A model generated the notes under the pieces. The model saw only the letters and a program-made list of their open reading frames with translations, searched no databases and was not told where the DNA came from. Below are positions 7,620 through 54,551 of a stretch of DNA of 64,000 nt, piece by piece. The stretch comes from Haloplasma contractile SSD-17B (GTDB lineage: Bacteria; Bacillota_I; Bacilli_A; Haloplasmatales; Haloplasmataceae), in contig NZ_AFNU02000004.1 in the NCBI RefSeq assembly GCF_000215935.2, positions 248,001 to 312,000 of the forward strand, in the 5' to 3' direction. Both the position numbers and the translations under genes were made by a program. How positions within the stretch are numbered: position 1 is the stretch's first letter; every line of letters starts with the position of its first letter.

Positions 7620-7630
7620 TAGATAAATTA

Positions 7631-7817: not shown

Positions 7818-7823
7818 AACTAT

Positions 7824-9400: not shown

Positions 9401-9438
9401 ATATTTATAGTAAACGATATAAAATGGAGGTTTTAAAA

Positions 9439-10719: not shown

Positions 10720-10727
10720 TAATAAAT

Positions 10728-10770
10728 AAGCATATAATTCAATTATGAATTATATGCTTCTCTTCTTTTA
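10728..10770 (+). terminator. purA terminator
   Basis: AAGCATATAATTC pairs perfectly with GAATTATATGCTT around AATTAT, followed by CTCTTCTTTT. Confidence 0.8.
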
Positions 10771-11085
10771 GGGTCTATTATTAAACGTACCATGAGTAAT
10801 TATAAATAATTCTAAATTAGATTATATAGATTAATCACTTCTTTACTCAAGATATAAAAGGTTGTTATTAATGACAATCTCTTTGAGTGTTTCATAGGCA
10901 GTGTAGGAGAGGTTGTTTCCATAATCGCTTACTCCATATGACAGATATCTGTTCTGTCACGCCTTAAACTATTGTCTACTAATTGTTCATAATTTTGCAC
11001 AAAATATACTTATGCATAAAGAGGTTTTGATATAGTCTAAGCGTCTTAATTTAAGAAAACAAGTCATATCTTTAAAATATCTAAA

Positions 11086-11099
11086 TGAAAACGATTTAA
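11086..11099 (+). promoter_or_regulatory. Candidate cre (CcpA) site
   Basis: TGAAAACGATTTAA agrees with the cre consensus TGWAARCGYTWNCW at all but two constrained positions. CcpA control of pfl is known in Gram-positives. No ccpA gene is in the window. Confidence 0.45.
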
Positions 11100-11153
11100 T
11101 TATTATATTAATTGCTAAAAAGAGAAAAATGTTATAAAATAAATGTGGAAATT

Positions 11154-11171
11154 TTGTAAAAAAAATAACAA
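11154..11171 (+). promoter_or_regulatory. Candidate Rex (NADH-sensing repressor) site
   Basis: TTGTAAAAAAAATAACAA matches 11 of 14 fixed positions of TTGTGAANNNNTTCACAA. Rex represses fermentative genes including pfl in other Firmicutes. The AT-rich background makes chance matches likely. Confidence 0.35.
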
Positions 11172-11492
11172 ACTTAAAAGTGAACTTTTATAAATAAATA
11201 CACCTTCTGTTACCTAATGGTTTTATTTTGTAAATTCCTATAAAAAGGTTGAATGAAGCTGTTCAATTAGGTGAAGTGATTTTTTTAGGTTTTCATACTT
11301 TTATACGAATAGTCATGGTAGGGATTAATAATATGAATCAGTATGACTACGTGACTAACTAAGTGTGTATAGGGTTCTATATTTAATACAAACTATCAAT
11401 AAAAGGTAGTTGTAGAAGAATCTTAATAAATGCTGTTCACATAAATAGAGAGTCAGATATAAACTATAAAACTCAATAAGGATGGTGTTAAC

Positions 11493-36600: not shown

Positions 36601-37706
36601 TAGTTATTATTAGATACTGTCTGATCAAATTCAACTTTGCTGATTGGTAGACAAGGTTCTAACTTCATCTCCTGGTCTAATTTCAACGCCAGTCCAAGAT
36701 TATTTAATAACCGATCACACTCGATTATTTGACCGGACATTGTTTTTGTTGACAATTCAAAATTAAACCCATTTAGATTTAGGTCATGATATGCGATATA
36801 AAGCATAATGATCATAGGGTTTATAATGGCATCTTCACGTTTCAGGTGAATTTCTAATGTATGTTTCTTTGTTTCAACGATTTCAACGGGAGTCATAATT
36901 AAGGGTGCCCTTACAGAATCCTTATCTCCTATTTTACCTTCTACAAATGGAAAACCAAAAAATAGTTCATTTTTGCCTGACTCTCTTATAATTGCGCGTT
37001 GTTCCTGTCTAATCAATAAGAAGTTTCGGTAACTCTTTTCTCTTTGGTTGTTATATTTTTCAACAAGAGAGAATAAAAGTTCGTGTATATCGCTAAAATT
37101 TTTGATTAACATTGTATTTGAGAGAATATATTCAAGGTTTGTTAATAATTCCTCACTCATTAACTCCTTATACTTCGATTCCCATATAAAATCACCTTGG
37201 TTCACATCGTCTTTTAGACCAGAGAATAAGTGATTTAAAACGTTAAGACTAAGACCAAAACTTTTTGTGATGAAATGAATAAAAGGATTTAGTTTTTTCA
37301 GGTAAGGATGTTTTTCAATATTAATCCCATCATCGATACTATTATTCGTAAAGGGTTCATTCTTCTTTAGTTCTGCAGTTATATTACCAATTTTACATAA
37401 TAAATCAATTCGACGTTCGTCGTCGGTATCAAGTTCCGGAATCATGTCTAAGGTTTCACTTATCAGTCCATTACGAACTAGATCTTTTATATCGTCTAGG
37501 TCTATATAGTTCAACTCTAACTTAATTTTATCATGTTCTTTTATAAAATCGTCGAGACTTGTGTCTGTATAAAAATTACTAATTTCTGTAAACAAGTCAA
37601 TCGCACGTCGTCTACTAGTTCTACCTAAAAAAAGTGTTCGCAATCGAGAGTTCACATTTAGTAATCGTTTCTTATAGTTTTCTAAAACAAATTTAGTTTG
37701 GTCCAT
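33699..37706 (-). CDS. Large SF1 helicase with DUF4011-like N-terminus and Vsr/PD-(D/E)XK-like nuclease tail
   Basis: 1335 residues. The N-terminal ~330 residues are DUF4011-like (RAPLIMTPVEI, NELFFGFPF). Upf1/Dna2-type SF1 helicase: Walker A GPPGTGKS at 461-468, Walker B LVIFDEAS near 910, then NVQGDERDIIVFS and GGENRLNVAITRAKR (motifs V/VI). A long insertion (~550-850) of Asn/Tyr-rich sequence splits the motor. The last ~80 residues look like a Vsr/MTES_1575 nuclease: FRVDIGIYD, VIECNE, YDYDSYKYL, EWNIYRLWNYNW. Such helicase-nuclease proteins are defence candidates. It is a single gene with a strong GGGAGG site and its own terminator; no toxin, methylase or other defence gene is adjacent. 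Confidence 0.85.
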   Translation of the reverse strand: MDQTKFVLENYKKRLLNVNSRLRTLFLGRTSRRRAIDLFTEISNFYTDTSLDDFIKEHDKIKLELNYIDLDDIKDLVRNGLISETLDMIPELDTDDERRIDLLCKIGNITAELKKNEPFTNNSIDDGINIEKHPYLKKLNPFIHFITKSFGLSLNVLNHLFSGLKDDVNQGDFIWESKYKELMSEELLTNLEYILSNTMLIKNFSDIHELLFSLVEKYNNQREKSYRNFLLIRQEQRAIIRESGKNELFFGFPFVEGKIGDKDSVRAPLIMTPVEIVETKKHTLEIHLKREDAIINPMIIMLYIAYHDLNLNGFNFELSTKTMSGQIIECDRLLNNLGLALKLDQEMKLEPCLPISKVEFDQTVSNNNYKVKGYPILAIFPITNLHIYNDYQNIITNLSVDEEGLLHKMLLGDGVNLFTGSNNYDLISGYKEDDILKINDLDFTQSIVVRNSLDKNLVIQGPPGTGKSQVISNIIANAINQNKSVLVVSEKRAAIDVIINRLGTLSPMAMLVSDLADKRGFFNQILNTFAFLKTLYNNHNKTHLYHNYYGNRSSNGENNTGYYGNSSLEQVNNTILDFFNKEKELLAFDNGVGKFYQFLLRSIKDYSNAELMKKDGKVLLSRYIEANTCNSSDNLNYNEELYHLITKSLSTLYDEMNDYELQYMELHRTPYLYKFYKEYLKYDDNYKNLKKLLTLLKSSDYTKEQKHYIFENAYYRNKVQKLNFITRKYTSHIYKSKLSEEEELYLNDLLNYNQEINVEKINTDLLYNKSDLERLINYIIENKVSYKVLMFTFETIFSEKFRQQFSSIFDFINTHDQMVNNVEQSFNEKTTHSINIIINSYYERIKQVNTEFDKEILKLNHEANLKRHKQIRVMFNRHFELLKQIYPVMLMTPDVVSSVLPIKENQFDLVIFDEASQLFVEKSIPSIYRAKSMIVAGDEHQLKPFHSFSKRYIDFDEDDDEYIEAEENLIAESLLDASKGKYRNIMLDSHYRSLYKELIDYSSHAYYNGKLKFASMNKQLELPIELIQTTGTWANQQNKEEALEVVALVESVLIKRKYNESIGIITFNKKQKDLIEELIIEKSSDNPVLKDELDRRNEEDERDESLFVKNIENVQGDERDIIVFSIGYAKNKKGKMVNQFGSLSQAGGENRLNVAITRAKRKIYVVKSCMASDFNINEDNRGPYLFKKYVKYVECLNTSGEQDEQIMTLLNSLSSDEEQTIKDTRVTDVNYSALKNDIINSLSSAINKDRYKVIPNLRVGSFRVDIGIYDTYENVYKLVIECNEIEPNQDLKIVEYDYDSYKYLQQREWNIYRLWNYNWLLNKEKEVGIIIKLLK

Positions 37707-38111: not shown

Positions 38112-38957
38112 CTATGCAACTTCCTGAATAGATTGATGTTGTCTTGAGACTTTATTTTTAACTATATGCTTTTCCTTGTAGTACCAAGGAAGAAAGGCTA
38201 GTAAAAAGAATACTAACGCTACTGTCTCGAATGTAATTAATGTTAGAATATCTTGCTTTGGAAAGAAGGTTATTCCAGTCTTGTCGGGATCAACTAAAAA
38301 CAAATAATTCGAACCAAGAGCATAATTAATGAATAGTGTTGATATTGCAAAAACATTTAACCACAGGAATGAACGGATTAAAGATTGTTTATTAATTTTA
38401 TGACCGAGTACAACGATCATGTACATGATTATTAATACAATTCCTATATGGCCTATAAAAAATTGATAGTATCTAAAACGAGTCGGTCCAAAATCATAAT
38501 CATAGTTTGAAACTTTCAGAGCACTAGGTAAGAACAATGCAAGAGAAGAACCACAAAAAACCCAAAAATAAAGAACATCGAATAGTTTTTTGCTATTAAT
38601 AAATAACATAATACCTGCTAATACCATTGCAATTCCGCAAAGACTTAGTGGCAGGTCTTTTTGTATACTTGCCTGAATAGGGGCCTGTACTTTGTTTAAT
38701 GACTCTCTCATTTGCTCCCCTATATACGCATTATTCCATCCGTAGGACATTTGAGTAAGAATTATAACTGCAGCTATAACATATCGAACTATCTTTTCAT
38801 GTTTGTATTGTTGAATTTTCATTCTATATTTATATAAAATAAGTATAATGATCAACATAATAATTAAAGGAACTAAATGATCTAAACTGTAGTACTTAAA
38901 CGTGTAACCATCCTCAGGGTAACTAAAAAAGTTTGATAGTATATAGACCACATCCAT
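38112..38957 (-). CDS. TIGR02206/YwaF-like integral membrane protein
   Basis: 281 residues with about seven membrane helices. The N-terminal FKYYSLDHLVPLIIM, central DLPLSLCGIAMVLAG and RYYQFFIGHIGIVL match the TIGR02206 (YwaF) family pattern of unknown function, including the conserved Leu-Cys/His region. It is transcribed in the same direction as the helicase gene but 405 bases upstream, so linkage is doubtful. The start is followed by no strong ribosome site, so the first ATG is tentative. Confidence 0.8.
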   Translation of the reverse strand: MDVVYILSNFFSYPEDGYTFKYYSLDHLVPLIIMLIIILILYKYRMKIQQYKHEKIVRYVIAAVIILTQMSYGWNNAYIGEQMRESLNKVQAPIQASIQKDLPLSLCGIAMVLAGIMLFINSKKLFDVLYFWVFCGSSLALFLPSALKVSNYDYDFGPTRFRYYQFFIGHIGIVLIIMYMIVVLGHKINKQSLIRSFLWLNVFAISTLFINYALGSNYLFLVDPDKTGITFFPKQDILTLITFETVALVFFLLAFLPWYYKEKHIVKNKVSRQHQSIQEVA

Positions 38958-41549: not shown

Positions 41550-43610
41550 ATGAAGAGAATTATTGTTCTAGGTGGTGGATACGGTGGTATTCTCACAGCT
41601 AAGAAATTAGCTAAGAAATTAAAAAAACAAGATGTAAAAATCACCTTAATAGACAAAAATCCTTATCATACAATGTTAACAGAGTTACATGAAGTTGCTG
41701 CGGGACGTGTTCATGAAGATTCAATAAAAATTTACTTTGATCAAGTATTTGCAGGACGCAATGTTGACGTTGAGATGGATGAAATAACGAACATTGATTT
41801 TAGCAACAATATATTAACATCAGAAACAACAGAATATCCTTATGACTACTTAGTGGTGGGAACAGGATGTAAGCCAACATTCTTCGGAAACGATCAGATT
41901 AAAGAGAATGTATTTACATTATGGTCTTTAGAAGATGCAAATATTCTAAAAGAACAAATTCATACCATGTTTAAAGAAGCTGCAAAAACAAAAGATGAAG
42001 CATTACGTAAAGAATTATTATCATTTGTTGTTGTTGGTGCAGGCTTTACTGGTGTTGAAATGGCTGGAGAATTAGCTGAACAAGTTCCAGAATTATGCCA
42101 TGACTATCGTATTAATCAAGAAGAAGTTACAGTTAAACTATTAGATATGGCACCACGCGTATTACCTGTATTTCCAGAAAAACTATCTGCAAATGCAGAT
42201 AAGAAGCTACGTAAATTAGGTGTTGAAATTCATACTGGAGAACCTTGTGGAGAAATCACAAAGGAATCAATTAAGTATGGAGAACAGGTATTTAAATCAC
42301 GTACAGTGGTTTGGGTAACTGGTGTTGAAGGATCAGAGCTTATGGACAACATCGAAGGTGTAGAAACAAAAGCTCGTGGCCGTATTGCATGTAATCAATA
42401 TTTACAGGCAGAAGGTAAAGAGAATGTTTACGTTGTTGGAGATAACATTTTCTATATTCCTGAAGGTGAAGAACGTCCTGTTCCGCAAATGGTCGAAAAT
42501 GCTGAACATTCAGCTGGAACAGTTGCTAAAAATATCGCAAGCGAATTCAAAGGAAAAGAAAAAGAATCATATAATCCTAGTTTCCACGGAGCTATGGTAT
42601 GTATCGGTGGACGTAAAGGTCTAGCGCAAGTTGGATCTGGAAATATGATGTTTAACATAAAAAATAGCTTCATCGCTTTATTTATCAAGCACTTTATTAA
42701 TATCGTTTATTTCTTCCAAGTGTTAGGATGGACAAAAGTTTGGTCATACATCAAGCATGAATTCTTTAATGTTCCTAATGACCGTTCAATGGTTGGAGGA
42801 TTATTATCACGTAAGACACCGAATATCTGGACTGTACCATTACGAATATGGTTAGGGATTAGTTGGTTCTTACAAGGTCTACCAAAACTAACTGAAAAGT
42901 TAACTGGAGGATGGGCTGACTATTGTACGTTAGGTGAATTCCCACGTGATTTTGAGAATAAAGGTTTATTATGTCAGATTCAGGGTGAAGTAGTGAATGA
43001 ATATCAAACAGATGTTTCTATCGCTGCACCTGAGGATCCAGTTATAGTTGAACATAATTATGAAGATCTACATGGTTTTGAACTAGTCATGACATACATT
43101 ACAGATTTCTTTAAAGGGTTTGCACCTACAAATTATGGATGGTATGGTTCAGAGCATGATATTCCTTATATATTAGAATATTTCCAACAGTATAAATGGA
43201 TTGGTTGGCTATTCTGGTTAATCGAATGGGCATATGACTTATTCATTGTAATTGCTGATTGGTCTATGAATACGATTGTTGCTTACTTTGCTCCATTATT
43301 TGAATTAGTATTAGCAGTTGGAGAAACTGGTGTCGGAATTTTATTAATTATCGGTTTATTCACTTCAGTTGCTGCTCTAGGTTCACTAGTGCTGACAATA
43401 ATGGTACTAGTAGGAAGTTCGTTAGCATATGATGGAATTGTTTTAACGGAACTATTCTGGTACTTAGTAGGAAGTATTGCACTTCTTAACTTTGGTGGTA
43501 GTGGAAATGTTGTGTCAGTAGATTACTACATTATGCCTAAAGTTAGAGCATTCTGGCAAAAAATACCGCTTGTTAAAAAGTGGTATACTTATGGAGAAAA
43601 AATTCAGTAA
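41550..43610 (+). CDS. NDH-2 type NADH:quinone dehydrogenase fused to membrane domain (Ndh2, EET-like)
   Basis: Residues ~1-385 are a type II NADH dehydrogenase: FAD motif VLGGGYGGILTA, NADH motif VVVGAGFTGVEMAGELAE, and VYVVGDN closing the FAD site. Residues ~390-686 form an unusual membrane region: IWTVPLRIWLGISWFLQGLPK (DoxX-like), a soluble insert, and three to four C-terminal helices (LLIIGLFTSVAAL and following). Listeria Ndh2 of the flavin-based electron transfer locus has the same NDH-plus-membrane architecture. It passes NADH electrons to quinone. It is followed by a lipoprotein gene 31 bases later. GAGGAGG eight bases before the ATG. Confidence 0.88.
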   Translation: MKRIIVLGGGYGGILTAKKLAKKLKKQDVKITLIDKNPYHTMLTELHEVAAGRVHEDSIKIYFDQVFAGRNVDVEMDEITNIDFSNNILTSETTEYPYDYLVVGTGCKPTFFGNDQIKENVFTLWSLEDANILKEQIHTMFKEAAKTKDEALRKELLSFVVVGAGFTGVEMAGELAEQVPELCHDYRINQEEVTVKLLDMAPRVLPVFPEKLSANADKKLRKLGVEIHTGEPCGEITKESIKYGEQVFKSRTVVWVTGVEGSELMDNIEGVETKARGRIACNQYLQAEGKENVYVVGDNIFYIPEGEERPVPQMVENAEHSAGTVAKNIASEFKGKEKESYNPSFHGAMVCIGGRKGLAQVGSGNMMFNIKNSFIALFIKHFINIVYFFQVLGWTKVWSYIKHEFFNVPNDRSMVGGLLSRKTPNIWTVPLRIWLGISWFLQGLPKLTEKLTGGWADYCTLGEFPRDFENKGLLCQIQGEVVNEYQTDVSIAAPEDPVIVEHNYEDLHGFELVMTYITDFFKGFAPTNYGWYGSEHDIPYILEYFQQYKWIGWLFWLIEWAYDLFIVIADWSMNTIVAYFAPLFELVLAVGETGVGILLIIGLFTSVAALGSLVLTIMVLVGSSLAYDGIVLTELFWYLVGSIALLNFGGSGNVVSVDYYIMPKVRAFWQKIPLVKKWYTYGEKIQ

Positions 43611-43641
43611 TAGACTGAAAAATAGATTGGAGGCAAATAAA

Positions 43642-44619
43642 GTGAAAAAGATAATGATAATGATGTTTATTTTAATAACAGCTGTAGCCTTAACTGGGTG
43701 TGACTTCCAAAACACAACTTATTTTACAGCTCCTACACAAGAGGCTACTTATATAGATAATAGTGAGATCACATTTGATCCATATGAAGTATTAGAATTA
43801 AACTATCCTAAAGCAGGCAAACATTTTGAAGAACCATTAGAAACACCGATGTCAATTAGTGAATTCTTATTCTCTCAAGATATATTAACTGCTGATGAAA
43901 TCGATACATTTAGAGAAAATTATATTGTAGAATTAGAATACCGTTTTAATCACCATGGAGAGACGTTTGAAACTTACGAATTTACTGGTGAAGACTATAT
44001 CGCTAAATTCGAAGATCCATTTAATACATTCGGTGACACAGAAGGTGTTAAAGAATTTGAATATCGTGTTCATTTCATAGATAAAGAAACGTTGGATCGT
44101 TCAGAAATGATTAATGTAACAGGTATCATTGAATTAGAGCCAGCTCCGATTGGAGTAGTTGAGAACACCATTACAGTGGATCGCTTTGAACCGTATGATG
44201 TATTAAACAATCTATACATGCCATTTCCTGTTCCAGTACCTGAAGAAGATACTGATACTGAAGGAGAATATTATGCTTTAGAAGATTTATATACATTTGA
44301 ATTCTTAGTGAATGGCAAAGAAGATGAACAAGAATTTGTTTCGGGAGTTAAAGGTATTCATACAATTACTATATTAGCTACTGAGATTCTTAATGAATCT
44401 GATCAAGGTGCTGATGAAGACGAAGGTACCGATGATGAATCAGGCGCAAGTGATGATTCGGATTGGACATTTAACCAAGATGATAGTGGAATTACATTCT
44501 TAGGAAATACTACGAATGAAACTTCATTCGTAAAATTAGCTAATGAAGCAACATCTACTGAAGAAGAAACAGTAGCTGGTGAAACATATACAATTACATT
44601 CACAATAACAGTAAAATAA
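43642..44619 (+). CDS. Lipoprotein of unknown function, co-transcribed with NDH-2
   Basis: 325 residues from GTG 43642 (GGAGG 8 bases before). Signal peptide with lipobox ALTGC (Cys ~23), so surface-exposed and lipid-anchored. The mature part is acidic and beta-rich, with two similar segments (ITFDPYEVLELNYP and ITVDRFEPYDVLNNLY), then an Asp/Ser-rich linker (~270-290) and a beta C-terminus. No FMN_bind, haem or metal motif seen. Its operon with ndh2 suggests a role in surface electron transfer, or in anchoring; homologues not recognised. Listeria EetA/EetB do not obviously resemble it. Confidence 0.8.
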   Translation: MKKIMIMMFILITAVALTGCDFQNTTYFTAPTQEATYIDNSEITFDPYEVLELNYPKAGKHFEEPLETPMSISEFLFSQDILTADEIDTFRENYIVELEYRFNHHGETFETYEFTGEDYIAKFEDPFNTFGDTEGVKEFEYRVHFIDKETLDRSEMINVTGIIELEPAPIGVVENTITVDRFEPYDVLNNLYMPFPVPVPEEDTDTEGEYYALEDLYTFEFLVNGKEDEQEFVSGVKGIHTITILATEILNESDQGADEDEGTDDESGASDDSDWTFNQDDSGITFLGNTTNETSFVKLANEATSTEEETVAGETYTITFTITVK

Positions 44620-44626
44620 GATATAA

Positions 44627-44665
44627 AAAAGATCGTTCAATAGTTAATATTGAACGATCTTTTTA
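44627..44665. terminator. Terminator after the ndh2-lipoprotein operon
   Basis: AAAGATCGTTCAATA pairs perfectly with TATTGAACGATCTTT around GTTAA, with A and T tracts at both ends. Confidence 0.93.
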
Positions 44666-44692
44666 TATTGTCTACTAAAAATTAGGTTTTTT

Positions 44693-44716
44693 AAAAAAAA
44701 GACACAATAAGTGTCC
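44693..44716 (-). terminator. hepT terminator
   Basis: On the minus strand GGACAC pairs with TGTGTC around TTAT, followed by T8. Confidence 0.88.
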
Positions 44717-44724
44717 TTTATATA

Positions 44725-45681
44725 TCATGATGAGCGTTTTTCTAGTTGTAAAAGTAATTCTTTTAATATTTTAGTGTCAGGATGCTTGATTTTTCTTAAT
44801 GCTCTCTTGGCCTTTTGTTGGTACTTTTTATTTAGTTTCTTACTTCTATCTAAGGCCTTACTATCTTGAATAAGATCAATACACGATTTAAACTCGGATT
44901 CTGATGAATTTTCCGATAGTTCTCTAATTTTAGAACTTATTTTTTTATTTTTTAATGCATAGATAACTGGCAGTGTAATATTACCATTAAGTAAGTCCTG
45001 ACCAGCTGGCTTACCTAGTTCGCTCTCACCCTGTGTAAAGTCTAGTATGTCATCTATTATTTGAAAAGATATACCTAAATTAATTGAGTAATGATATAAA
45101 TGTTTAAGAGTTCTCTTATCTGCACCGGCAATACTGGCACCACTAATTAAAGATGCTGCTATCAGTAATGCGGTCTTATTTTTAGTCTTTTCTATATATT
45201 CTTTTAGAGAAACATCAAAGTTATATAAAAAGTCTTGTTGCATTATTTCTGAGTGACAAAGATCGGTTAATGACATATATGAATAATAATCTTCTTCAAT
45301 ATTGTATTTTGAGATTAACTCTGCACACATACTCATCACGTAGTTTCCTAACATGATTGCAGTGTATTTATCTGTTGTTATATGGAGTGACGGTATACCT
45401 CTTCTTGTTTCTGCATGATCTATTACATCATCATGTATTAATGTAGCAGTATGAACAAGCTCAAATATTGAAGCATACTTGTATATATGTGCTACTTCCT
45501 TATTACCAAAGTAACTTCCAATAATCGTAAATAAAGGGCGTAATTTTTTACCTTGGTTTATGGTTAAATCAAGAATAAATTGTTTCTGATCGTACGAAAG
45601 CAGCTCATCTTCAGTAATTATATTATATATTTCGTCATCTATTACTTGTTTATTAACATTTGCTATTTCAAATAAATCCAT
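44725..45681 (-). CDS. hepT: Polyprenyl diphosphate synthase, HepT/DmkB-like
   Basis: Trans-prenyltransferase making the long isoprenoid chain of menaquinone or demethylmenaquinone. 318 residues. First Asp-rich motif DDVIDHAETRRG, second DDILDF, GKPAGQDLLNGNITLPV, and GKKLRP substrate loop, all present. ATG 45681 chosen over GTG 45690 because AGG is eight bases upstream. Directly downstream of a HepS-like gene (28 bases). In the Listeria electron transfer locus the DmkB protein has this role. Chain length cannot be read. Confidence 0.94.
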   Translation of the reverse strand: MDLFEIANVNKQVIDDEIYNIITEDELLSYDQKQFILDLTINQGKKLRPLFTIIGSYFGNKEVAHIYKYASIFELVHTATLIHDDVIDHAETRRGIPSLHITTDKYTAIMLGNYVMSMCAELISKYNIEEDYYSYMSLTDLCHSEIMQQDFLYNFDVSLKEYIEKTKNKTALLIAASLISGASIAGADKRTLKHLYHYSINLGISFQIIDDILDFTQGESELGKPAGQDLLNGNITLPVIYALKNKKISSKIRELSENSSESEFKSCIDLIQDSKALDRSKKLNKKYQQKAKRALRKIKHPDTKILKELLLQLEKRSS

Positions 45682-45709
45682 TTTATTCACCTAACTCATA
45701 ATAGCTATA

Positions 45710-46111
45710 TTAAATCGTATTCATTAGCGCCTTTAATAAATGGTCAGTATGCTTTTGATTTAATCGATTAAATATAACTTTTTTTGTATTTTGAGTAAAA
45801 ACGTCTAAAAGTTCGAACTTTTTATTTTTATATAATATTTCAGTGCAATAACTACTAATGTAATCTCCTAATAAGATATAATACTGTAAATCGCTACTAT
45901 CATATTTCGCCATTTTATGACAATCAAGGGCTGTATAAAACAATGTGTAGATTGCAGCGATTATTTCCTTATAATGATCGGAAATGTGCTTAGAATTTAA
46001 ATGGTGACAAACCTCATGATATTTTGCTATATTAATTTGAATTTCAACAGGTGTGTACTGTTTTGTGTACTGGATAATCATATTTATATATTTATTATCG
46101 TGAGAAATCAT
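45710..46111 (-). CDS. hepS: Heptaprenyl diphosphate synthase component I-like (HepS), short
   Basis: 133 residues, about half the size of B. subtilis HepS (~251). The region ALDCHKMAKYDSSDLQYYILLGDYISS parallels the HepS signature (LDTHD..., LAGDYYS). It lies directly before hepT, as hepS does in Bacillus (with menG between), and should be the non-catalytic subunit that sets chain length. The identification rests on this short motif, size of the helical bundle, and position. AAGGAG precedes ATG 46111 by eight bases. Confidence 0.62.
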   Translation of the reverse strand: MISHDNKYINMIIQYTKQYTPVEIQINIAKYHEVCHHLNSKHISDHYKEIIAAIYTLFYTALDCHKMAKYDSSDLQYYILLGDYISSYCTEILYKNKKFELLDVFTQNTKKVIFNRLNQKHTDHLLKALMNTI

Positions 46112-46347
46112 GATAAATACTCCTTATTTAATATAGTAATATAGTAATTTTCACACAATTAATTATAATTGTCAAATGTTATATTTTCCTGCTATCAAAA
46201 TGTATAATCGACAGCAAAATACACATAATAACAGTTTGTGAATTTTTTTCGAAAATGTATTGAGTTTTGTGAAAAATTGAGTTATAATAAATTTGCAACG
46301 AAAGATATAAGCACACTTTGCAATAAAAAATAAAGGGAGGACTAAGA
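46112..46347. promoter_or_regulatory. Divergent control region, pplA-like promoter
   Basis: TTGAGT (46260-46265), 17-base spacer, TATAAT (46283-46288) is a good promoter for the pplA-like gene. Two TTGTGAA Rex half-sites (46236-46242 and 46267-46273), one inside the spacer, lie 31 bases apart. Redox control is suggested but half-sites alone are weak evidence. Confidence 0.5.
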
Positions 46348-48039
46348 ATGAAAAAGTTATTATCAATTTTCGCAATAGCTATGTTATCATTAGCATTAGC
46401 CGCTTGTGGTGACAATACTGATGAAACAACAGAAGCTACAGAAGCAACTGAGGCAACAACTGATACATCAGACTCAGGAGATACAACTGAGGCTGGAGAC
46501 TTCGAAAACATCGCAGATGGATATTACTTCGCTGCTGACGATCGTCAAACTGAAACTGGTGAGACTTACAGATATTGGGTAACTGCCGAGGTTAAAGACG
46601 GTGAGTTAACTGACCTTACATGGGATGCATACCACATTGATGGTGGAGTAAGCAAACTTAAGGGTCAAAGTAAGTTCGTAGGATCTTATAATGGTCTTTA
46701 TGGTATGGATAAATATGGAAATGAATATGGTAAATGGTACGTTCAAGCATCACGTGCAATTAACTATATTTTAGAAAACCAAGATATGGATCTTACTTTT
46801 GATGCAGATGGATATTCAGATGAGATAGGTGGAATCACAATTCATTATGTTGAATTAATTGACTTATTATCAGAAGCATTATCAAATGATGCAGTTGAAA
46901 AAGGAATCTACAACGATGGATACTACTATGTTGAAGAAGGAACAACAATGTTAACAACTGTTGTAGTAAACGGTAGAATTGTATTAGCCGACTTTAATGC
47001 AATTAATGCTAAAGAGTATACAAATGCTGATGGAGAAACAGAAATTGGATTAACTAAAGATTCTTTATTAGAGAATTATGGAATGACTCCAACTAACCCT
47101 TGGTACGTTCAAGCTCAACAAATCGAGAATTATGTAATGGAAAATCAAAATCTTGATGTTGTACTTAAAGACGATACAAGAACTGACGATATATCAGATA
47201 TATCAATCAAGATGCCAGGATTTATAGGAGCTTTTGATGCATTCATCGAAGAAAGTTCAGACTATGCTCAATATGTTGACGGTAAATATTTTGCTGCTGC
47301 TGAAGAGTTTGGTAATGGATATAAGTATTATGTAATACTTGAAATCGAAGACGGACTATTAGTTGATGCTGAATTAAATGCTTATGCTCAAGACGGAGAT
47401 AAAAATAAATGTTTAGGTGAAACTAAGTATGACTGTTCACTAGCAGGGAACTATGGAATGAATACAGACAATCCTTGGTATGAACAAGCAGACGCTATTA
47501 CAGCGTACGCAATTAAAACTCAAAAAGCTGACATAAATTATAACGATGATAACGGACATACAGATGAAATTGCTGATGTTACAATTCACGTTAATGAATT
47601 CTTTGAATTAGCTAAAAAAGCATTAAAAGCTGGTCCAGTAATGGCACCACGTGGAGCTGAATTAGTTGATGGATTCTACTTCGTTACTGATGAAGATACT
47701 GATGCAGACAAATATAACATGGGTACATTCATTGTTGTTGACAATGCAATTGTATTAGCTGATTTAAATGCTGCTCATCCAAAAACAGTTGATGGAACTG
47801 ACTATGTTACTAAGGATGCAATGGGTGCTGGATATGGAATGAATCCGGACAATCCATGGTTCGAGCAAGTACAAAAAATCGAACAAGAAATCTTAGATAC
47901 ACAAGCTAGCTTCACATTAAATACAACTGACGCTGATGGACATCAAGATACTTTATCTGATGTTTCAATCAAGGTTAATGGTCAACTTGGAATATTTGAC
48001 TTATTTATAACAGAAGCAACACCAACACCAGCTAGCTAA
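46348..48039 (+). CDS. pplA: Four-repeat PplA-like FMN-binding lipoprotein
   Basis: 563 residues with lipobox ALAAC (Cys20) and a Thr/Glu-rich spacer. Four tandem repeats of ~125 residues follow (about 52-178, 186-303, 305-428, 436-555). Each has a DG.YF.. strand, a YGM...NPW(Y/F).Q motif (from ~118, 244, 369, 496) and a final D-x-(I/L)-x-x-(I/V)-(T/S)-I motif at D158-T164, D280-S286, D406-T412 and D534-S540, which align with the DxxSGAT(S/T) flavinylation site of FMN_bind domains. Repeats 1 and 3 have Thr, 2 and 4 Ser. It likely shuttles electrons outside the cell, with an ApbE gene nearby. Confidence 0.78.
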   Translation: MKKLLSIFAIAMLSLALAACGDNTDETTEATEATEATTDTSDSGDTTEAGDFENIADGYYFAADDRQTETGETYRYWVTAEVKDGELTDLTWDAYHIDGGVSKLKGQSKFVGSYNGLYGMDKYGNEYGKWYVQASRAINYILENQDMDLTFDADGYSDEIGGITIHYVELIDLLSEALSNDAVEKGIYNDGYYYVEEGTTMLTTVVVNGRIVLADFNAINAKEYTNADGETEIGLTKDSLLENYGMTPTNPWYVQAQQIENYVMENQNLDVVLKDDTRTDDISDISIKMPGFIGAFDAFIEESSDYAQYVDGKYFAAAEEFGNGYKYYVILEIEDGLLVDAELNAYAQDGDKNKCLGETKYDCSLAGNYGMNTDNPWYEQADAITAYAIKTQKADINYNDDNGHTDEIADVTIHVNEFFELAKKALKAGPVMAPRGAELVDGFYFVTDEDTDADKYNMGTFIVVDNAIVLADLNAAHPKTVDGTDYVTKDAMGAGYGMNPDNPWFEQVQKIEQEILDTQASFTLNTTDADGHQDTLSDVSIKVNGQLGIFDLFITEATPTPAS

Positions 48040-48049
48040 TATTAAAATT

Positions 48050-48090
48050 AAAATAACCTATCTGACATGTTCAGATAGGTTATTTTTTTA
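48050..48090 (+). terminator. pplA-like terminator
   Basis: AATAACCTATCTGA pairs with TTCAGATAGGTTATT around CATG, followed by T7. Confidence 0.95.
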
Positions 48091-48832
48091 TGTTAAGATT
48101 TCTTATAATCAGAGGGGAGGTACTAAAATATAGTACTCCTCAATTTATATATTTATTATAGTATTTTATTAGGGACCATTTATAATAATTTTTAACGTAG
48201 TTTTCACTTATGAAACCTGAGTTGATAAAGTCATATTTTTAACTAAAAATAGATTTAATTTCATTATATATTCTGTGGTATTTTTAACACTATTACTGAA
48301 TAAACCATAAAAATACTTTGTTATTATTCATTATATATATAAACGTTGACTAGTATGAAAAGATTTTTTTTATAAAATAACCTAACTTAATATTCTAATT
48401 GGAGTAGACTCATCTCTAAAATAAGGTAATTGATATTAACAATTATATTTCTAAGTTGAATGCTTTATAAACTATTTATTCTGTGAGCACAAATTATTAG
48501 CAAGTATTAGAGGGACCATGGCTTTAATTTATAGTCATTTTATTAACTCATTTGTGTTGCTTCTACTTTATTATCTTAACGTGATTCGTCTGGTGATATA
48601 ACTCTACCATCTTTATAAAATCTTTTCCAACTCGCTATACATTGAATTAAAGCTATGATCTATAAGTATTTATCATGGTATTTTCAATCATGATATTCTT
48701 ACATAAAGTTTATATCTAAATCTAAGGTATATGTTTGTACGATTACACTTGGATTATTTTTTCTAATTTTGTAAATACCTTTTACTTATCTCATTTTTCT
48801 CTTATTACTTAATATAACTATCTCTAAACATA
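48091..48832. other. Gene-poor stretch, possible decayed coding DNA
   Basis: About 740 bases with no supportable gene. On the minus strand, 48579-48655 reads as an open 27-codon fragment containing ASWKRFYKDGR and bounded by stops, resembling protein rather than noise, but no family could be named. TATTAGGGACCAT-like sequence occurs twice in the same orientation (near 48168 and 48505). No inverted repeats or target duplications of an insertion sequence. Confidence 0.35.
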
Positions 48833-48874
48833 GAAAAATACCCTATAGTCTATAGTTATCATTTTTAGGGTATC
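48833..48874 (-). terminator. apbE terminator
   Basis: On the minus strand ATACCCTA pairs with TAGGGTAT around a 20-base loop, followed by TTTTCT. Confidence 0.6.
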
Positions 48875-48951
48875 CAGACTATAAGGTATATTTTAAACTA
48901 CAATTATAGAATAGTTTTTGTATTTATATATGTTTATGATCTTATCAATTA

Positions 48952-50256
48952 TTAACCCTTTCTTTTCACGACAATGAACCCGACTGACCCAGCAGCAATT
49001 ACACCAACTAATATAGAAGTAATAATTGTAAAGTTATACGATTCCTCATCACTCTTTTCTTCTTGTTCATCAGGATTTTCAATTTCTCCGTTATCGTCAT
49101 TGTCGTTGTCTATAACATTTCCATCTTTATCATAAAGTTTAAAATCATTATTAGTTATGTCTAATTTATACTTATCAATCATTCCCGAGGAAACATAAAC
49201 CTCGTTATCATACGTTACAAAAGCTGCTTCAACATCGTCCAATGATTCTACTAACTCTAGACCATCCCTGAGACCTAGCGCTAAAACTGATGTTGATAGT
49301 CCATCTGCTGCCATTGAATTATCAGTAATGATTGAAACAAGTTCAACCTCATTATCAACAGGAAAACCGGTGTATGGGTTAAGTATATGGTGATATACAT
49401 TCCCTGTATCAGGGTCTGTTAAGCAACTCCCACCCCAGTCCTTCCAACACCGTTCATAAGTACCAGAGCTCACAATTGTTTTATCAGAAACATATACATC
49501 TGCATAGGATGAAGATGCTTCAGGATTTAACCACATATCATACTCAGGATTTTTTAGACCTATGATCCATTCATCAGAACCTGTGTAATTTGCTTTATAA
49601 CGGTCCCCTAATAGTAGGAGATTCCCACCTAAATTAATGATACCGTGTTCATATCCTTTTGATTTTAGATATTCAGTCAATTTGTCTGCGGCAAATCCTT
49701 TTGCAATTGCGCCTAAATCAATAATCATACCTTCCTTAGGTAGATATACTTCATTTGTTTCTTCATCCATTTCTATAAGTCTATAATCAATTAATGGCTT
49801 GATAGTTTGTAACTGAGCCTCAGTAGGAACAGATGGTTCTTCATATGATCCCCAGGTTTCAATCAAAGGACCTATTGTTGGTTCAAACATACCATCTGTC
49901 ATTTTGGCATATTCAATCGCTTCCCTAATTACATTAAAGAGATCCTCAGATACCACCACGGGCTCTATCCCAGCTTTTTGATTGAGTAGATAGAGTTCAC
50001 TAGAACTTTCAGAACGACTAAACGTATCTTCAATGTCTATAATAATGCTTTCTATATCACTCCATACATCTTCAGGAACGCTCTTGTCATCCCAAATTTT
50101 AAACGTTAAATATGTATCGAAATAATAAAAGTCACGATTTGATTTGACTAGGTCATCACTACTATTGTTAGCTTCTATTTTTGTGGGAGATACAATAAGT
50201 AATAGTGTTCCAGTTATTAATACGATAAACATTAGAAATAGTTGTCTTTTTACCAT
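48952..50256 (-). CDS. apbE: ApbE: FAD:protein FMN transferase, membrane anchored (FmnB-like)
   Basis: Mg-dependent enzyme that attaches FMN to Thr/Ser of target flavoproteins, here probably the pplA-like lipoprotein. 434 residues. ApbE motifs: DLGAIAKGFAADKL, GIINLGGNLLLLG and ADGLSTSVLALG. N-terminal signal peptide or anchor (~8-25) without a lipobox, then an acidic linker (~385-405) and a C-terminal helix (ILVGVIAAGSVGFIVV) with a basic tail. Most family members lack a C-terminal anchor; this one is tethered outside, near its substrate. GGAGG precedes ATG 50256. Confidence 0.93.
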   Translation of the reverse strand: MVKRQLFLMFIVLITGTLLLIVSPTKIEANNSSDDLVKSNRDFYYFDTYLTFKIWDDKSVPEDVWSDIESIIIDIEDTFSRSESSSELYLLNQKAGIEPVVVSEDLFNVIREAIEYAKMTDGMFEPTIGPLIETWGSYEEPSVPTEAQLQTIKPLIDYRLIEMDEETNEVYLPKEGMIIDLGAIAKGFAADKLTEYLKSKGYEHGIINLGGNLLLLGDRYKANYTGSDEWIIGLKNPEYDMWLNPEASSSYADVYVSDKTIVSSGTYERCWKDWGGSCLTDPDTGNVYHHILNPYTGFPVDNEVELVSIITDNSMAADGLSTSVLALGLRDGLELVESLDDVEAAFVTYDNEVYVSSGMIDKYKLDITNNDFKLYDKDGNVIDNDNDDNGEIENPDEQEEKSDEESYNFTIITSILVGVIAAGSVGFIVVKRKG

Positions 50257-50338: not shown

Positions 50339-50377
50339 AAAAAAAGGGATAAACACTACAAAGTGTTTATCCCTGTC
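50339..50377 (-). terminator. aspA terminator
   Basis: GGGATAAACACT pairs perfectly with AGTGTTTATCCC; read on the minus strand it ends in T7. Confidence 0.93.
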
Positions 50378-50403: not shown

Positions 50404-51861
50404 TTATCCTTGACTCGCTTCCACCTTTTTATTCCTTGTTCGTTTAAGTAAGATCTCTTCCCCGGATATTCCAGGTGATGTCATGTTATTAATATTTAAG
50501 ATAACCTCAATCTCTTCACTAGATAAAATATTTTCATCTACTAATAGCTCTCTAACGCCTCTATTCTGTTTGATTGCTTCTTTTGCTAGATCTGAAGCGC
50601 GCTTGTATCCAATGTGCGGTGCTAATGCTGTAACGATTCCTGCACTACGCTCTACATATGAGATACAACGTTCTTTATTAACGGTAATTCCTACGACTGC
50701 ACGTTTACAGAATGTTTTAATACCACGGCGTAAAACGTCTAATGATTGGAATAGATTTGCTAATAAAACGGGTTCAAACACATTAAGTTCTAACTGTCCT
50801 GCTTCTGCAGCTTTTGTAATCGTCAAATCATTCCCCATAACTTGGAATGAAACTTGGTTAACAACCTCTGGTATAACAGGGTTTACCTTACCAGGCATAA
50901 TCGAAGAACCGGGTTGCATTTGAGGTAATGTAATCTCATTGAAACCACTTACTGGTCCTGATGCCATTAAGCGTAAATCATTAGCCGTTTTAGATAAACT
51001 AACTGCTAATGTCTTTAAAGCAGATGAAAGCCAAACAAATGGATCAAGATTACGTGTTGCATCGACTAAGTCATCAGCTTGTTTAAAGTTAATATTAGTA
51101 AGGTCAGATACAATGGAAACAATGTTTTTTACATAATCTTTGTTAGCATTTAAACCTGTACCTACTGCTGTTGCACCCATATTTAAGACTTTTAAATCTT
51201 CAATGGCACTTTCTACACGTCTAATATCCCTCTCAAGTGCAGTAGCAAATGCATTGAACTCCTGTCCTACGCGAATAGGAACAGCATCCTGAAGGTGAGT
51301 ACGGCCCATCTTAATAACGCCACCAAACTCATTTGCCTTATCAAGGTAAGCTTTATGTAATCGTCTCATCTCTTTCAATAAAGATTGAGTTAATTTGATT
51401 GTTGCAATTTTAGCACCGGTCGGAATAATATCATTTGTTGATTGTCCAAAGTTACAATGATCATTTGGATGTACTAGATCATAAGTTCCTTTAGTTCCAC
51501 CAAGTATTTCTTGGGCACGATTTGCAATAACTTCATTTGCATTCATGTTAATTGAAGTACCGGCCCCACCTTGAATCATATCTGTGATGAATTGACTAAG
51601 AAATTTACCAGACATAATTTCTTCACAGGCTTTTACTATGGACTTATATACGTTCTCATCTAACATACCTGCACGATAATTGGCAGTTGCTGCAGCCTTT
51701 TTAGTTACAGCTACACCTTTAATCATTTCACGATGTACTTTTTGTTTTGAAATTTGAAAGTTTTCCTTTGCACGTAGTGATTGAATGCCATAATAAGCAT
51801 CAATTGGTACTAACTTTTCACCTAAAGAGTCTACTTCTATGCGATATCTACTATTGTCCAT
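50404..51861 (-). CDS. aspA: Aspartate ammonia-lyase
   Basis: Reversible deamination of aspartate to fumarate. 485 residues of the fumarase/aspartase superfamily: TSINMNANEVIANRA, SQSTND-like GQSTNDIIPT, GRTHLQDAVP and the catalytic loop GSSIMPGKVNPV. The first residues (RIEVDSLGEKLVP) favour aspartase over FumC. GGAGAA precedes the ATG. It lies 80 bases after the malic enzyme gene with no terminator, so fumA-fumB-malic enzyme-aspA is probably one operon. Confidence 0.95.
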   Translation of the reverse strand: MDNSRYRIEVDSLGEKLVPIDAYYGIQSLRAKENFQISKQKVHREMIKGVAVTKKAAATANYRAGMLDENVYKSIVKACEEIMSGKFLSQFITDMIQGGAGTSINMNANEVIANRAQEILGGTKGTYDLVHPNDHCNFGQSTNDIIPTGAKIATIKLTQSLLKEMRRLHKAYLDKANEFGGVIKMGRTHLQDAVPIRVGQEFNAFATALERDIRRVESAIEDLKVLNMGATAVGTGLNANKDYVKNIVSIVSDLTNINFKQADDLVDATRNLDPFVWLSSALKTLAVSLSKTANDLRLMASGPVSGFNEITLPQMQPGSSIMPGKVNPVIPEVVNQVSFQVMGNDLTITKAAEAGQLELNVFEPVLLANLFQSLDVLRRGIKTFCKRAVVGITVNKERCISYVERSAGIVTALAPHIGYKRASDLAKEAIKQNRGVRELLVDENILSSEEIEVILNINNMTSPGISGEEILLKRTRNKKVEASQG

Positions 51862-51941
51862 ACAACATTCTCCTTAATTACCTTTTCAATGATTTAGTCT
51901 ATGATTTTAAATTAATTATATCCTACTCTATATACGTTATA

Positions 51942-53135
51942 TTACTTAATCCTTGCAACGCCAGTATTGATTGCAGCCTTTACGACAGCTTCACTAACAG
52001 CTTTTGCAACACGGTTATCAAATGGTGATGGAATAATGTAGTCTGACTCTAACTCATCGTCTTCGAGTAAGTATGCAATTGCTTTTGCAGCAGCTAATTT
52101 CATTTCCTCATTAATCGCTTTTGCGTGACAATCTAAAGCACCTCTAAATATACCAGGAAAAGCTAATACATTATTAATTTGATTTGGATAGTCAGAACGA
52201 CCTGTACCGATAATTGTAGCACCAGCCTCTATAGCATCCTCTGGCATAATTTCTGGAATTGGGTTAGCCATAGCAAATATGAATGGATTATCATTCATTT
52301 TCATAACCATTTCTTTAGTTACTAGGCCAGCAATCGACACACCGACAAATACATCAGCACCTTCTAATGCATATTCTAGCGTATCTTCGCCTAATTTATC
52401 GCCTTTGTTTACAATTTCTAATAATTCATGTGTTAAGAAATTATACTTCTCTCTTTTAGACTCATGAACAATACCCTTACTATTTGTAGGAATAATATCT
52501 TTAACACCTAAATCATTGAGCATTTTTATAATTGAACTACCTGCAGCACCAGTACCACTCACTACAACGACTAAATCCTCAATTTTCTTACCAGTTAAAC
52601 GGCATGCATTGATTAATGCTGCAGTTGTGACAATAGCAGTTCCATGTTGATCATCATGAAATACTGGTATATCTAATTCCTCTTTCAAGCGCCTTTCGAT
52701 TTCAACACACTTTGGCGCTTTTATATCTTCTAAATTAATACCACCAAGAGATGGTGCGAGTAGTTTACATGTATTAATTATTTCTTCAGTATCTTGAGTA
52801 TCTAAACACAGTGGAAAAGAATCAACATTAGCAAATTCCTTAAGAAGAATAGACTTACCTTCCATTACTGGTAAAGAAGCCTCTGGCCCGATATTTCCTA
52901 GACCTAATACAGCTGATCCATCAGTAATAACTGCTACCATATTCCCCTTGCTTGTGTATTTATATACATCTTCTTTATTTTCCTGGATCTTTCTACAAGG
53001 TTCTGCAACACCTGGAGAGTATGCAAGACTAAGCTCCTCTTTATTCGTAACAGATACCTTTGACTGAATCGATAGTTTCCCTTTGTTATCTTCATGCAGC
53101 TTCAATGCTTCTTCATAAACTTTTTCTTTACCCAT
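51942..53135 (-). CDS. Malic enzyme (NAD(P)-dependent malate decarboxylase, oxaloacetate-independent short form)
   Basis: Malate to pyruvate plus CO2 with NAD(P). 397 residues, like the short bacterial MaeA/YtsJ forms. N-terminal LSLAYSPGVAEPC with the catalytic Tyr, KGNMVAVITDGSAVLGLGN, metal-binding HDDQHGTAIV, cofactor site VSGTGAAGSS and FAMANPIPEIMPEDA. Start ATG 53135, 11 bases after GGAGG, preferred over an upstream ATG that precedes the ribosome site. Its first bases overlap the fumB stop. Confidence 0.94.
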   Translation of the reverse strand: MGKEKVYEEALKLHEDNKGKLSIQSKVSVTNKEELSLAYSPGVAEPCRKIQENKEDVYKYTSKGNMVAVITDGSAVLGLGNIGPEASLPVMEGKSILLKEFANVDSFPLCLDTQDTEEIINTCKLLAPSLGGINLEDIKAPKCVEIERRLKEELDIPVFHDDQHGTAIVTTAALINACRLTGKKIEDLVVVVSGTGAAGSSIIKMLNDLGVKDIIPTNSKGIVHESKREKYNFLTHELLEIVNKGDKLGEDTLEYALEGADVFVGVSIAGLVTKEMVMKMNDNPFIFAMANPIPEIMPEDAIEAGATIIGTGRSDYPNQINNVLAFPGIFRGALDCHAKAINEEMKLAAAKAIAYLLEDDELESDYIIPSPFDNRVAKAVSEAVVKAAINTGVARIK

Positions 53136-53694
53136 CTGTATTACGACCTCCATTTATATTATATTTTTTAATATTTTCTTCCATTAAATCATTTCCATAG
53201 CAATCATTAATTACAATCGCAGGAAAGTCCTTTACCTCTAGTTTACGAATTGCTTCTGCACCTAAATCGTCATAAGCAATGATTTCAGAGCGTTTAACAC
53301 ATTTAGAAATGAGTGCAGCCGCCCCACCAACCGCTGCAAAATAAACGGCATTATTTTTTTCTAAAGCATCTTTGATTTCTTGATTTCTAGGCCCCTTACC
53401 AATCATACCATTTAAACCTTTTTCAAGAAGCGGTTCCGTATATGGGTCCATTCGATAACTTGTTGTAGGTCCAGACGAACCAATTACTTGACCTGGTTTT
53501 GATGGAGTAGGTCCTACATAGTATATTATTTGTCCGTCAACATCAAACGGTAATTTTTTACCTTTTTTTATTAATTCAACTAAACGTTTATGTGCTGCAT
53601 CTCGAGCGGTGTAAATAATACCAGAAATTTTTACCTTTTCACCGGCTTTAAGTTGTTTTACTACCTCATCCGTTAAAGGAGTAGTAATATCCAT
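53128..53694 (-). CDS. fumB: Fumarate hydratase class I, beta subunit
   Basis: 188 residues matching the C-terminal half of class I fumarases: ISGIIYTARDAAHKR, YYVGPTPSKPGQVIGSSGPTTSYRMD, and FAAVGGAAAL. It needs the alpha subunit encoded 17 bases upstream. AGGGGG precedes the ATG. The gene ends overlapping the malic enzyme start by 8 bases. Together they convert fumarate to malate to pyruvate. The related L(+)-tartrate dehydratase beta subunit is the alternative. Confidence 0.92.
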   Translation of the reverse strand: MDITTPLTDEVVKQLKAGEKVKISGIIYTARDAAHKRLVELIKKGKKLPFDVDGQIIYYVGPTPSKPGQVIGSSGPTTSYRMDPYTEPLLEKGLNGMIGKGPRNQEIKDALEKNNAVYFAAVGGAAALISKCVKRSEIIAYDDLGAEAIRKLEVKDFPAIVINDCYGNDLMEENIKKYNINGGRNTDG

Positions 53695-53711
53695 ATTAAT
53701 ATTCCCCCTTT

Positions 53712-54551
53712 TTAAATTACTTTGGACTTATGACGTGCTGCATGACATTGAATATTAATTGCAACTGGTAAAGATGCGATATGACATGGAAATGTATTGA
53801 CTTTAACAGCTAATGCAGTTTGAGTACCACCAAATCCCATTGGCCCTACCCCAAGTTGATTAATTTCCTCTAATAACTCCCGTTCTAACTTTGCAGCAAT
53901 GGGGTCAGAAGATTCATCATCTAAGTCACGCATCAGTGATTCTTTAGCGATGATCGCGGCCTTTTCTAAATCGCCACCAATACCTAGTCCTACAATTATA
54001 GGAGGGCACGGTTTGCCCTTTGCATCAAAGACTGTATCAAGTACTAACTTCTTAACACCATCATACCCCTCAGCTGGTGTTAACATTTTAACAGTGCTCA
54101 TATTTTCGCTACCTGCACCTTTTGCAGCAACCGTTATTTTAACTTGTTCACCTTGTGTTATTTTTGTATGAATAATTGCTGGTGTATTATCCTGTGTATT
54201 TACTCGATCAAATGGATGTTTAACTACAGATTTTCTTAGATAGGCGTTATTGTAAGCATTATGAACACCGAGGTTAATGGCATCATAAACATTCCCATCA
54301 AGGAATACCTCATTACCAACTTCTAAGAACACAACGACAATACCGGTGTCTTGACACATAGGAACATTTTCAGTAGTTGCAATCCAATCATTTTCAATGA
54401 TTTGTTCAAGTACCTCTTTACCAATTTCTGATTCTTCGTTCTCTTTAGCCTTTTTAATGGCATCATAAACATCATCACAAATATGGTAGTTCGCTTCAAC
54501 AAGTAATAACTCAACAGCCTCTGTAATTTGCTCTGGGTTAATTGTTCTCAT
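53712..54551 (-). CDS. fumA: Fumarate hydratase class I, alpha subunit
   Basis: 279 residues carrying the [4Fe-4S] cluster that hydrates fumarate: VPMCQDTGIV (first cluster Cys), PCPPIIVGLGIGGDLEKAA (second), and SLPVAINIQCHAARH (third). This is the two-subunit form of class I fumarase; tartrate dehydratase alpha is the alternative, but malic enzyme and aspartase next to it favour fumarase. GGAGG precedes ATG 54551. It is the first gene of the fumA-fumB-malic enzyme-aspA unit. Confidence 0.94.
   Translation of the reverse strand: MRTINPEQITEAVELLLVEANYHICDDVYDAIKKAKENEESEIGKEVLEQIIENDWIATTENVPMCQDTGIVVVFLEVGNEVFLDGNVYDAINLGVHNAYNNAYLRKSVVKHPFDRVNTQDNTPAIIHTKITQGEQVKITVAAKGAGSENMSTVKMLTPAEGYDGVKKLVLDTVFDAKGKPCPPIIVGLGIGGDLEKAAIIAKESLMRDLDDESSDPIAAKLERELLEEINQLGVGPMGFGGTQTALAVKVNTFPCHIASLPVAINIQCHAARHKSKVI

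What the first reader, a model, noticed from the sequence alone, without database searches (positions are those of the whole stretch)
41550..50256. Flavin-based extracellular electron transfer locus
Seen together: NDH-2 with a C-terminal membrane domain, surface lipoprotein, HepS/HepT, four-repeat PplA-like lipoprotein and ApbE. In Listeria, ndh2, dmkB, pplA and fmnB form a system carrying electrons from NADH through a quinone to external acceptors. eetA, eetB, fmnA and dmkA are not seen. The gene order is different and mixed in strand, so this would be a variant arrangement.
Basis: partly seen in the sequence, partly recalled or inferred. Interest (0 to 1): 0.85.

Follow-up and report, generated by a model that had tools for sequence, protein, structure and literature searches.

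The report
Brine bacterium's flavin electron-export gene cluster
A bacterium from a deep-sea brine lake carries a rearranged version of the gene set that Listeria uses to push electrons out of the cell, plus an extra surface protein that looks like a previously unrecognised carrier for a covalently attached flavin.

Summary
The genes exist as described. The window is Haloplasma contractile: 34 contigs with N50 347,868 published; our contig C4 is 347,868 bases. The block NDH2-lipoX / HepS-HepT / PplA-like / ApbE is conserved in order in eight of eight genomes of the family (lipoX absent in one; one contig ends before ApbE), beside aspA-malic enzyme-fumarase; Turicibacter has a four-gene version. 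ApbE's best solved relative is Listeria FmnB, catalytic residues kept. MenD and MqnC were not found, so the quinone headgroup is probably scavenged, as in L. plantarum. Two corrections matter. First, all four PplA-like repeats carry a degenerate ApbE motif, so its flavin content is uncertain. Second, the 'surface lipoprotein' (43642-44619), found only in this family, carries D-x-x-S-x-A-[S/T] in 7/7 orthologues, in a disordered hairpin loop of an Ig/cadherin-like scaffold, one to four copies per protein. It is the best candidate ApbE substrate here. Verdict: a real EET-type locus, a new variant of a known kind, with a probable new class of flavinylated lipoprotein. No activity has been measured.

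The parts
41550..43610 (+). NDH-2 (type II NADH dehydrogenase) with C-terminal DoxX/DoxD-like membrane domain; first gene of the NDH2-lipoX unit
   Evidence: Pfam/NCBIfam; solved NDH-2 relatives (YjlD, SAOUHSC_00878), best hit 4nwz E 1.4e-66; 62-68% identical full-length orthologues in 7 family genomes, about 47% in Turicibacter
43642..44619 (+). lipoX: lipoprotein, two Ig/cadherin-like beta-sandwiches, probable new ApbE substrate
   Evidence: GTG start with GGAGG, lipobox LTGC; full-length only in this family (7 of 395 class genomes); AF2 of an orthologue pLDDT 81.7; Foldseek to cadherin EC1-2 and Ig domains
44431..44451 (+). ApbE-type flavinylation motif DDESGAS in the low-complexity insert before the last strand of lipoX
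   Evidence: D..S.A[ST] in 7/7 orthologues, strict D..SGA[ST] in 4/7
44626..44664 (.). bidirectional intrinsic-terminator-like hairpin between lipoX and hepT
   Evidence: 17-pair stem with T tail
44725..45690 (-). HepT/DmkB-like long-chain polyprenyl diphosphate synthase
   Evidence: polyprenyl_synt E 2.7e-58; DDxxD motifs conserved
45710..46111 (-). small HepS-like partner of HepT
   Evidence: orthologue within 19 bp of hepT or overlapping it in 8/8 genomes; weak 9kp1 hit
46348..48039 (+). four-repeat PplA-like lipoprotein
   Evidence: 2kzx E 1.6e-17; repeats aligned; the only copy of the family with four repeats (others about two)
46819..46839 (+). repeat 1 motif position DEIGGIT (degenerate)
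47185..47205 (+). repeat 2 motif position DDISDIS (degenerate)
47563..47583 (+). repeat 3 motif position DEIADVT (degenerate)
47947..47967 (+). repeat 4 motif position DTLSDVS (degenerate)
48050..48086 (.). terminator-like hairpin after the PplA-like gene
48952..50256 (-). ApbE/FmnB-like FAD:protein FMN transferase with signal peptide and C-terminal transmembrane segment
   Evidence: PF02424 E 3.4e-72; best solved relative Listeria FmnB 7esa E 9.8e-55, SGxYER, YHHIL and DGLST catalytic segments kept
50345..50374 (-). terminator-like hairpin between aspA and apbE
50404..54551 (-). aspA, malic enzyme and two-subunit fumarase, conserved flank; apbE is the adjacent next gene
   Evidence: aspA-apbE gap -20 to +21 bp in five relatives

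Best explanation
This is a Listeria-type flavin-based electron export module in Haloplasma contractile. NDH-2 oxidises NADH and reduces a (demethyl)menaquinone in the membrane. The quinone is made by prenylating DHNA with a tail from HepS/HepT, using the single DHNA polyprenyltransferase encoded elsewhere; because MenD and MqnC are missing, the DHNA is probably taken from the environment. FAD is exported by an ECF transporter with the EetB-like S component, and ApbE transfers FMN from it onto surface lipoproteins. The main flavin carrier is inferred to be lipoX, apparently co-transcribed with NDH-2: it has the ApbE motif in a flexible loop. The PplA-like four-repeat protein is a second carrier, fully or partly flavinylated. 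They pass electrons to external acceptors such as ferric iron or soluble flavins. Shown here: the gene content, synteny, motif conservation and missing quinone genes. Inferred: flavinylation, the electron path, the acceptor, and the tie to aspartate/malate oxidation suggested by the neighbouring genes.
For: Gene block conserved in 8/8 family genomes, beside aspA-malic enzyme-fumarase. ApbE closest to Listeria FmnB, catalytic segments conserved (catalytic residues from PMC8906456). EetB-like PF07456 119.7 bits, EetA-like PF07009 70.8 bits placed between rplQ and ecfA1-ecfA2-ecfT, single UbiA above the DHNA polyprenyltransferase cut-off. MenD and MqnC not found, the same pattern as the DHNA-dependent EET organism L. 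plantarum (PMC10746273). EetB is the FAD-export ECF-S in Listeria (PMC9973259). lipoX: D..S.A[ST] in 7/7 orthologues, only in the disordered insert; of 128 ORFs in six loci, seven contain the motif and five of these are lipoX; NDH2-lipoX gap 26-39 bp in all seven. ApbE modifies seven-residue tags at termini or, less fully, in surface loops (PMC12052999).
Against: No experiment. The PplA-like protein fails the strict motif in all four repeats and scores 32.8 bits against a 325 cut-off for Listeria PplA. lipoX tails are D/S/G-rich, so a motif arises in 0.6-6% of shuffles of a single tail, and the seven are related, not independent. Three of seven lipoX copies have S or D instead of G in the motif. 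lipoX is missing from the locus of one family genome (G062, 85% complete). The genome also holds Rnf and several FMN_bind proteins, so the ApbE could serve these. A dedicated FmnA was not identified.
Confidence: 0.72

Rival explanations
1. The NDH-2 and quinone genes feed an ordinary anaerobic respiratory enzyme (H. contractile is described as reducing nitrate), and the lipoproteins are a side branch or do something else.
For: H. contractile is described as nitrate/nitrite-reducing (PMC10113666); quinone and NDH-2 are general respiratory parts.
Against: NDH-2, quinone-tail genes, PplA-like, lipoX and ApbE stay together across the family and, without lipoX and HepS, in Turicibacter, with no terminal reductase in the block; the extra membrane domain on NDH-2 and the FmnB-like ApbE match the EET set.
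Confidence: 0.12
2. The locus is an EET module, but lipoX is only a structural or adhesive surface lipoprotein; the motif is a by-product of a D/S/G-rich linker, and PplA-like alone carries the flavin.
For: Ig/cadherin-like fold; low-complexity tail; shuffled tails give the motif in up to 6% of cases; A-to-V in the motif still allows about 50% flavinylation in another protein (PMC12052999), so PplA-like may be modified.
Against: Motif in 7/7 orthologues, of which the six relatives are only 21-30% identical to the window copy; none outside the tail; up to four copies in one protein; gene fixed next to ndh2.
Confidence: 0.35
3. The module is a surface ferric reductase for iron uptake rather than for energy or NADH balance.
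For: EET genes reduce ferric iron in Listeria and L. plantarum.
Against: No siderophore or iron transporter genes in the block; the fixed neighbours are aspartate/malate catabolism.
Confidence: 0.12

Closest known systems
Listeria monocytogenes flavin-based EET locus (ndh2, dmkA, dmkB, pplA, fmnB, eetA, eetB, fmnA)
   Same: NDH-2 with extra membrane domain, polyprenyl synthase, FmnB-like ApbE, PplA-like lipoprotein; EetA-, EetB- and DmkA-like genes in the genome
   Different: Split over the genome; adds a HepS-like gene and lipoX; PplA-like has four repeats with degenerate motifs; EetA sits in the ECF ATPase operon; MenD and MqnC not found
Lactiplantibacillus plantarum EET (DHNA-dependent)
   Same: DHNA polyprenyltransferase without a full menaquinone pathway
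   Different: PplA, EetA and EetB/DmkB lie in one FLEET locus there; no lipoX described in the papers read
Turicibacter HepT-NDH2 | PplA-ApbE cluster (L071; also L051, L053, L057)
   Same: The four core genes clustered, in a comparable divergent layout
   Different: No HepS-like gene and no lipoX in the cluster; PplA motifs SGVT or similar
[quoted passage not shown]
   Same: Short ApbE motif in a flexible tail or insert
   Different: lipoX is an Ig/cadherin-like scaffold with no recognisable flavin-binding fold and no Pfam family

Membership tests
Listeria-type flavin-based EET locus | NDH-2 with C-terminal membrane extension | tested here: met
Listeria-type flavin-based EET locus | FmnB-type ApbE, secreted, catalytic residues kept | tested here: met
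   best solved relative is Listeria FmnB; S, E-R, H and D of the active site conserved
Listeria-type flavin-based EET locus | DmkB and DmkA for demethylmenaquinone | tested here: met
   HepT in locus; DHNA polyprenyltransferase elsewhere, above cut-off
Listeria-type flavin-based EET locus | EetB FAD-export S component and EetA | tested here: met
   PF07456 and PF07009 matches over cut-off, outside the window
Listeria-type flavin-based EET locus | FmnA (dedicated ECF-T) | tested here: inconclusive
   an EcfT-like protein is present in the ecfA1-ecfA2 operon; a dedicated FmnA was not searched
Listeria-type flavin-based EET locus | PplA with two flavinylated Thr in [S/T]GA[S/T]-like sites | tested here: inconclusive
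   domain homologous, D and final S/T kept, but Ala replaced by I/V in 4/4 repeats
Listeria-type flavin-based EET locus | Extracellular electron transfer activity | not testable with these tools
   needs a culture
PplA (NCBIfam NF041941) | score over the 325-bit cut-off | tested here: not met
   32.8 bits; a homologue, not a member
ApbE substrate (lipoX) | D-x-x-[S/T]-G-A-[S/T] motif | tested here: met
   strict in the window copy (DDESGAS) and in 4/7 orthologues including it; relaxed D..S.A[ST] in 7/7
ApbE substrate (lipoX) | gene near apbE | tested here: met
   same block in all lipoX-bearing genomes whose contig reaches apbE
ApbE substrate (lipoX) | covalent FMN | not testable with these tools
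   needs co-expression and mass or fluorescence
FMN_bind domain (PF04205) | Pfam match of lipoX or PplA-like | tested here: not met
   no match for either

The most novel reading that the evidence does not exclude
lipoX is a new class of flavinylated electron carrier: an Ig/cadherin-like surface lipoprotein that holds one to four FMN groups on a disordered hairpin loop, a natural flavin-tag, taking electrons from the quinol pool next to NDH-2 and replacing or supplementing PplA, whose own flavin sites have decayed.
Probability: 0.5. Interest if true: 0.72.

Novelty: new variant of a known kind. Interest (0 to 1): 0.58.

Why it matters
It places flavin-based electron export in Haloplasma contractile, an isolate from a deep-sea brine-sediment interface that branches between Firmicutes and Mollicutes, and predicts that it depends on quinone precursors made by others. 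If lipoX is flavinylated, ApbE substrates need no flavin-binding fold: a motif on a flexible loop suffices in nature, which widens the search for hidden redox proteins.

Tried and rejected
A search with the Listeria PplA model in 395 genomes of the class found nothing, so the Listeria motif itself could not be compared directly. Rfam found no RNA element in the locus. AF2 on the window lipoX gave a poor model (pLDDT 52); the shorter orthologue gave a good one. Profile searches of lipoX and HepS against Pfam and PDB gave no reliable family. Class-wide lipoX hits outside the family are N-terminal lipoprotein-signal or short partial matches and were discarded. The idea that apbE is co-transcribed with aspA in the window itself was weakened by a terminator-like hairpin between them, though the genes abut or overlap in five relatives.

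Full report
What is there. Six genes at 41550-50256 form four transcription units by orientation and terminator-like hairpins: ndh2-lipoX (+), hepS-hepT (-), a PplA-like gene (+) and apbE (-). NDH-2 has the usual dinucleotide folds and a C-terminal DoxX/DoxD-like membrane part. ApbE is closest among solved structures to Listeria FmnB (7esa, E 9.8e-55); the segments with Ser257, Glu261-Arg262, His273 and Asp301 of FmnB are conserved (residue roles from PMC8906456). It has a C-terminal transmembrane-like segment (sequence).

Where it comes from. The genome has 34 contigs and the window lies on contig C4, 347,868 bases long. The published Haloplasma contractile assembly has 34 contigs and N50 347,868 (PMC3855842). 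I conclude that this is H. [quoted passage not shown]

Conservation. In seven other genomes of the family the same genes occur in the same order and relative strands (loci L043-L049); in G043 the contig ends before apbE. Named copies include Inordinaticella fortuita, a MAG labelled Haloplasma contractile B5_bin.1 and two Bacilli MAGs. The flanks are also fixed wherever the contig is long enough: aspA, malic enzyme, fumarase and EPSP synthase on one side, and uraA on the other in several. lipoX follows ndh2 by 26-39 bp in all seven genomes that have it. apbE overlaps or abuts aspA (-20 to +21 bp) in five relatives; in G053 and in the window the gap is 109 and 147 bp, and the window has a hairpin there. 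Turicibacter (L071, matching L053 and L057) has hepT-ndh2 and pplA-apbE only.

The missing genes. EetB, the FAD-export S component in Listeria (PMC9973259), has a homologue at C4:172956. An EetA-like gene lies between rplQ and ecfA1-ecfA2-ecfT, which ties it to the ECF machinery. One UbiA protein scores above the cut-off for DHNA polyprenyltransferase. MenD and MqnC have no match above cut-off. The organism therefore probably prenylates DHNA that it does not make, as L. plantarum does (PMC10746273). The genome is estimated 98.8% complete, so a missed gene is possible.

The PplA-like protein. Its four repeats match the solved domain 2kzx, which has DAISGAT. In the window the sites read DEIGGIT, DDISDIS, DEIADVT and DTLSDVS. 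Across the family the Asp and the final Ser/Thr are kept while Ala is mostly Val or Ile; second-repeat exceptions are DATTGAS, DANTGAT and DDVSEAT. An Ala-to-Val change halves flavinylation in another protein (PMC12052999). So partial flavinylation is plausible, not established. Listeria PplA is modified at Thr143 and Thr265 (PMC8906456), but I could not fetch its sequence.

lipoX. This protein has no reliable Pfam or PDB sequence relative and occurs full length only in this family: 7 of 395 genomes of the class, all of them family members. Every orthologue has D-x-x-S-x-A-[S/T] in the low-complexity insert before its last strand: DDESGAS in the window; DDNSGAS, DATSSAT and DGTSGAT in G019; DGTSGAS in G007; DGNSGAT, DAESGAS, DANSSAS and DGSSGAT in G071; DAVSSAS in G043; DGVSDAT in G031; DAVSSAS in G053. 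None lies outside the tail. Shuffling each tail gives the motif in 0.6-6% of cases; the seven are related, so these values must not be multiplied. The AF2 model of the L068 copy (pLDDT 81.7) has two beta-sandwiches; apart from the signal peptide the only low-confidence stretch is 222-235, which holds DAVSSAS at 224-230 between strands 208-218 and 240-250. Foldseek matches cadherin and Ig tandem domains by local score; the global TM-scores are low, about 0.2, so the domain type is supported and the domain arrangement is not. Short ApbE motifs at termini or in loops are flavinylated when engineered (PMC12052999). lipoX is therefore the most likely ApbE substrate of the locus on sequence grounds.

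Mechanism and limits. The proposed path is NADH to NDH-2 to (demethyl)menaquinol to lipoX and PplA-like to an external acceptor. The fixed neighbours suggest NADH from aspartate via fumarate, malate and malic enzyme; this is inference. Nothing here measures flavin or current. The Rnf complex and other FMN_bind proteins in the genome also need ApbE, and a second apbE exists.

Verdict. The class is known; the layout, the dispersed accessory genes and lipoX make it a new variant.

Noticed in passing
G000:C1 about 549.4-554.8 kb (L017:6452-11761): Complete Rnf operon (CDGEAB order) with RnfG motif DTISGAT, another ApbE client in the same genome.
   Followed up: partly
G000:C2:150764, C13:61800, C3:299018, C6:71319 and C2:89027: Five small secreted FMN_bind proteins; three are lipoproteins of about 140-165 aa with sites DIIAGAT, DAIQGAT and DYIAGAT; the C6 one (DVVSGAT) lies beside a flavodoxin-like gene.
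   Followed up: partly
L054 (G104) 3143-12125: An 829 aa protein with six PplA-like repeats directly downstream of an Rnf-like operon that also has an extra DSVSGAT protein; suggests Rnf feeding a PplA-like carrier.
   Followed up: no
L050, L055 and L056 (genus g39): PplA-like lipoproteins without NDH-2, ApbE or quinone genes beside them.
   Followed up: no
L070 (MAG labelled Robertmurraya): PplA-ApbE-EetA-EetB cluster followed by what look like an iron-sulfur subunit and an NrfD-like membrane subunit; no NDH-2 seen.
   Followed up: no
window 33699-37706 (-): 1335 aa DUF4011/AAA_11/AAA_12 helicase with C-terminal MTES_1575 nuclease domain, of the kind seen in defence islands.
   Followed up: no
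window 38112-38957 (-): TMEM164-type membrane acyltransferase next to uraA; members of this family recur near the block in two relatives (L043, L048).
   Followed up: no
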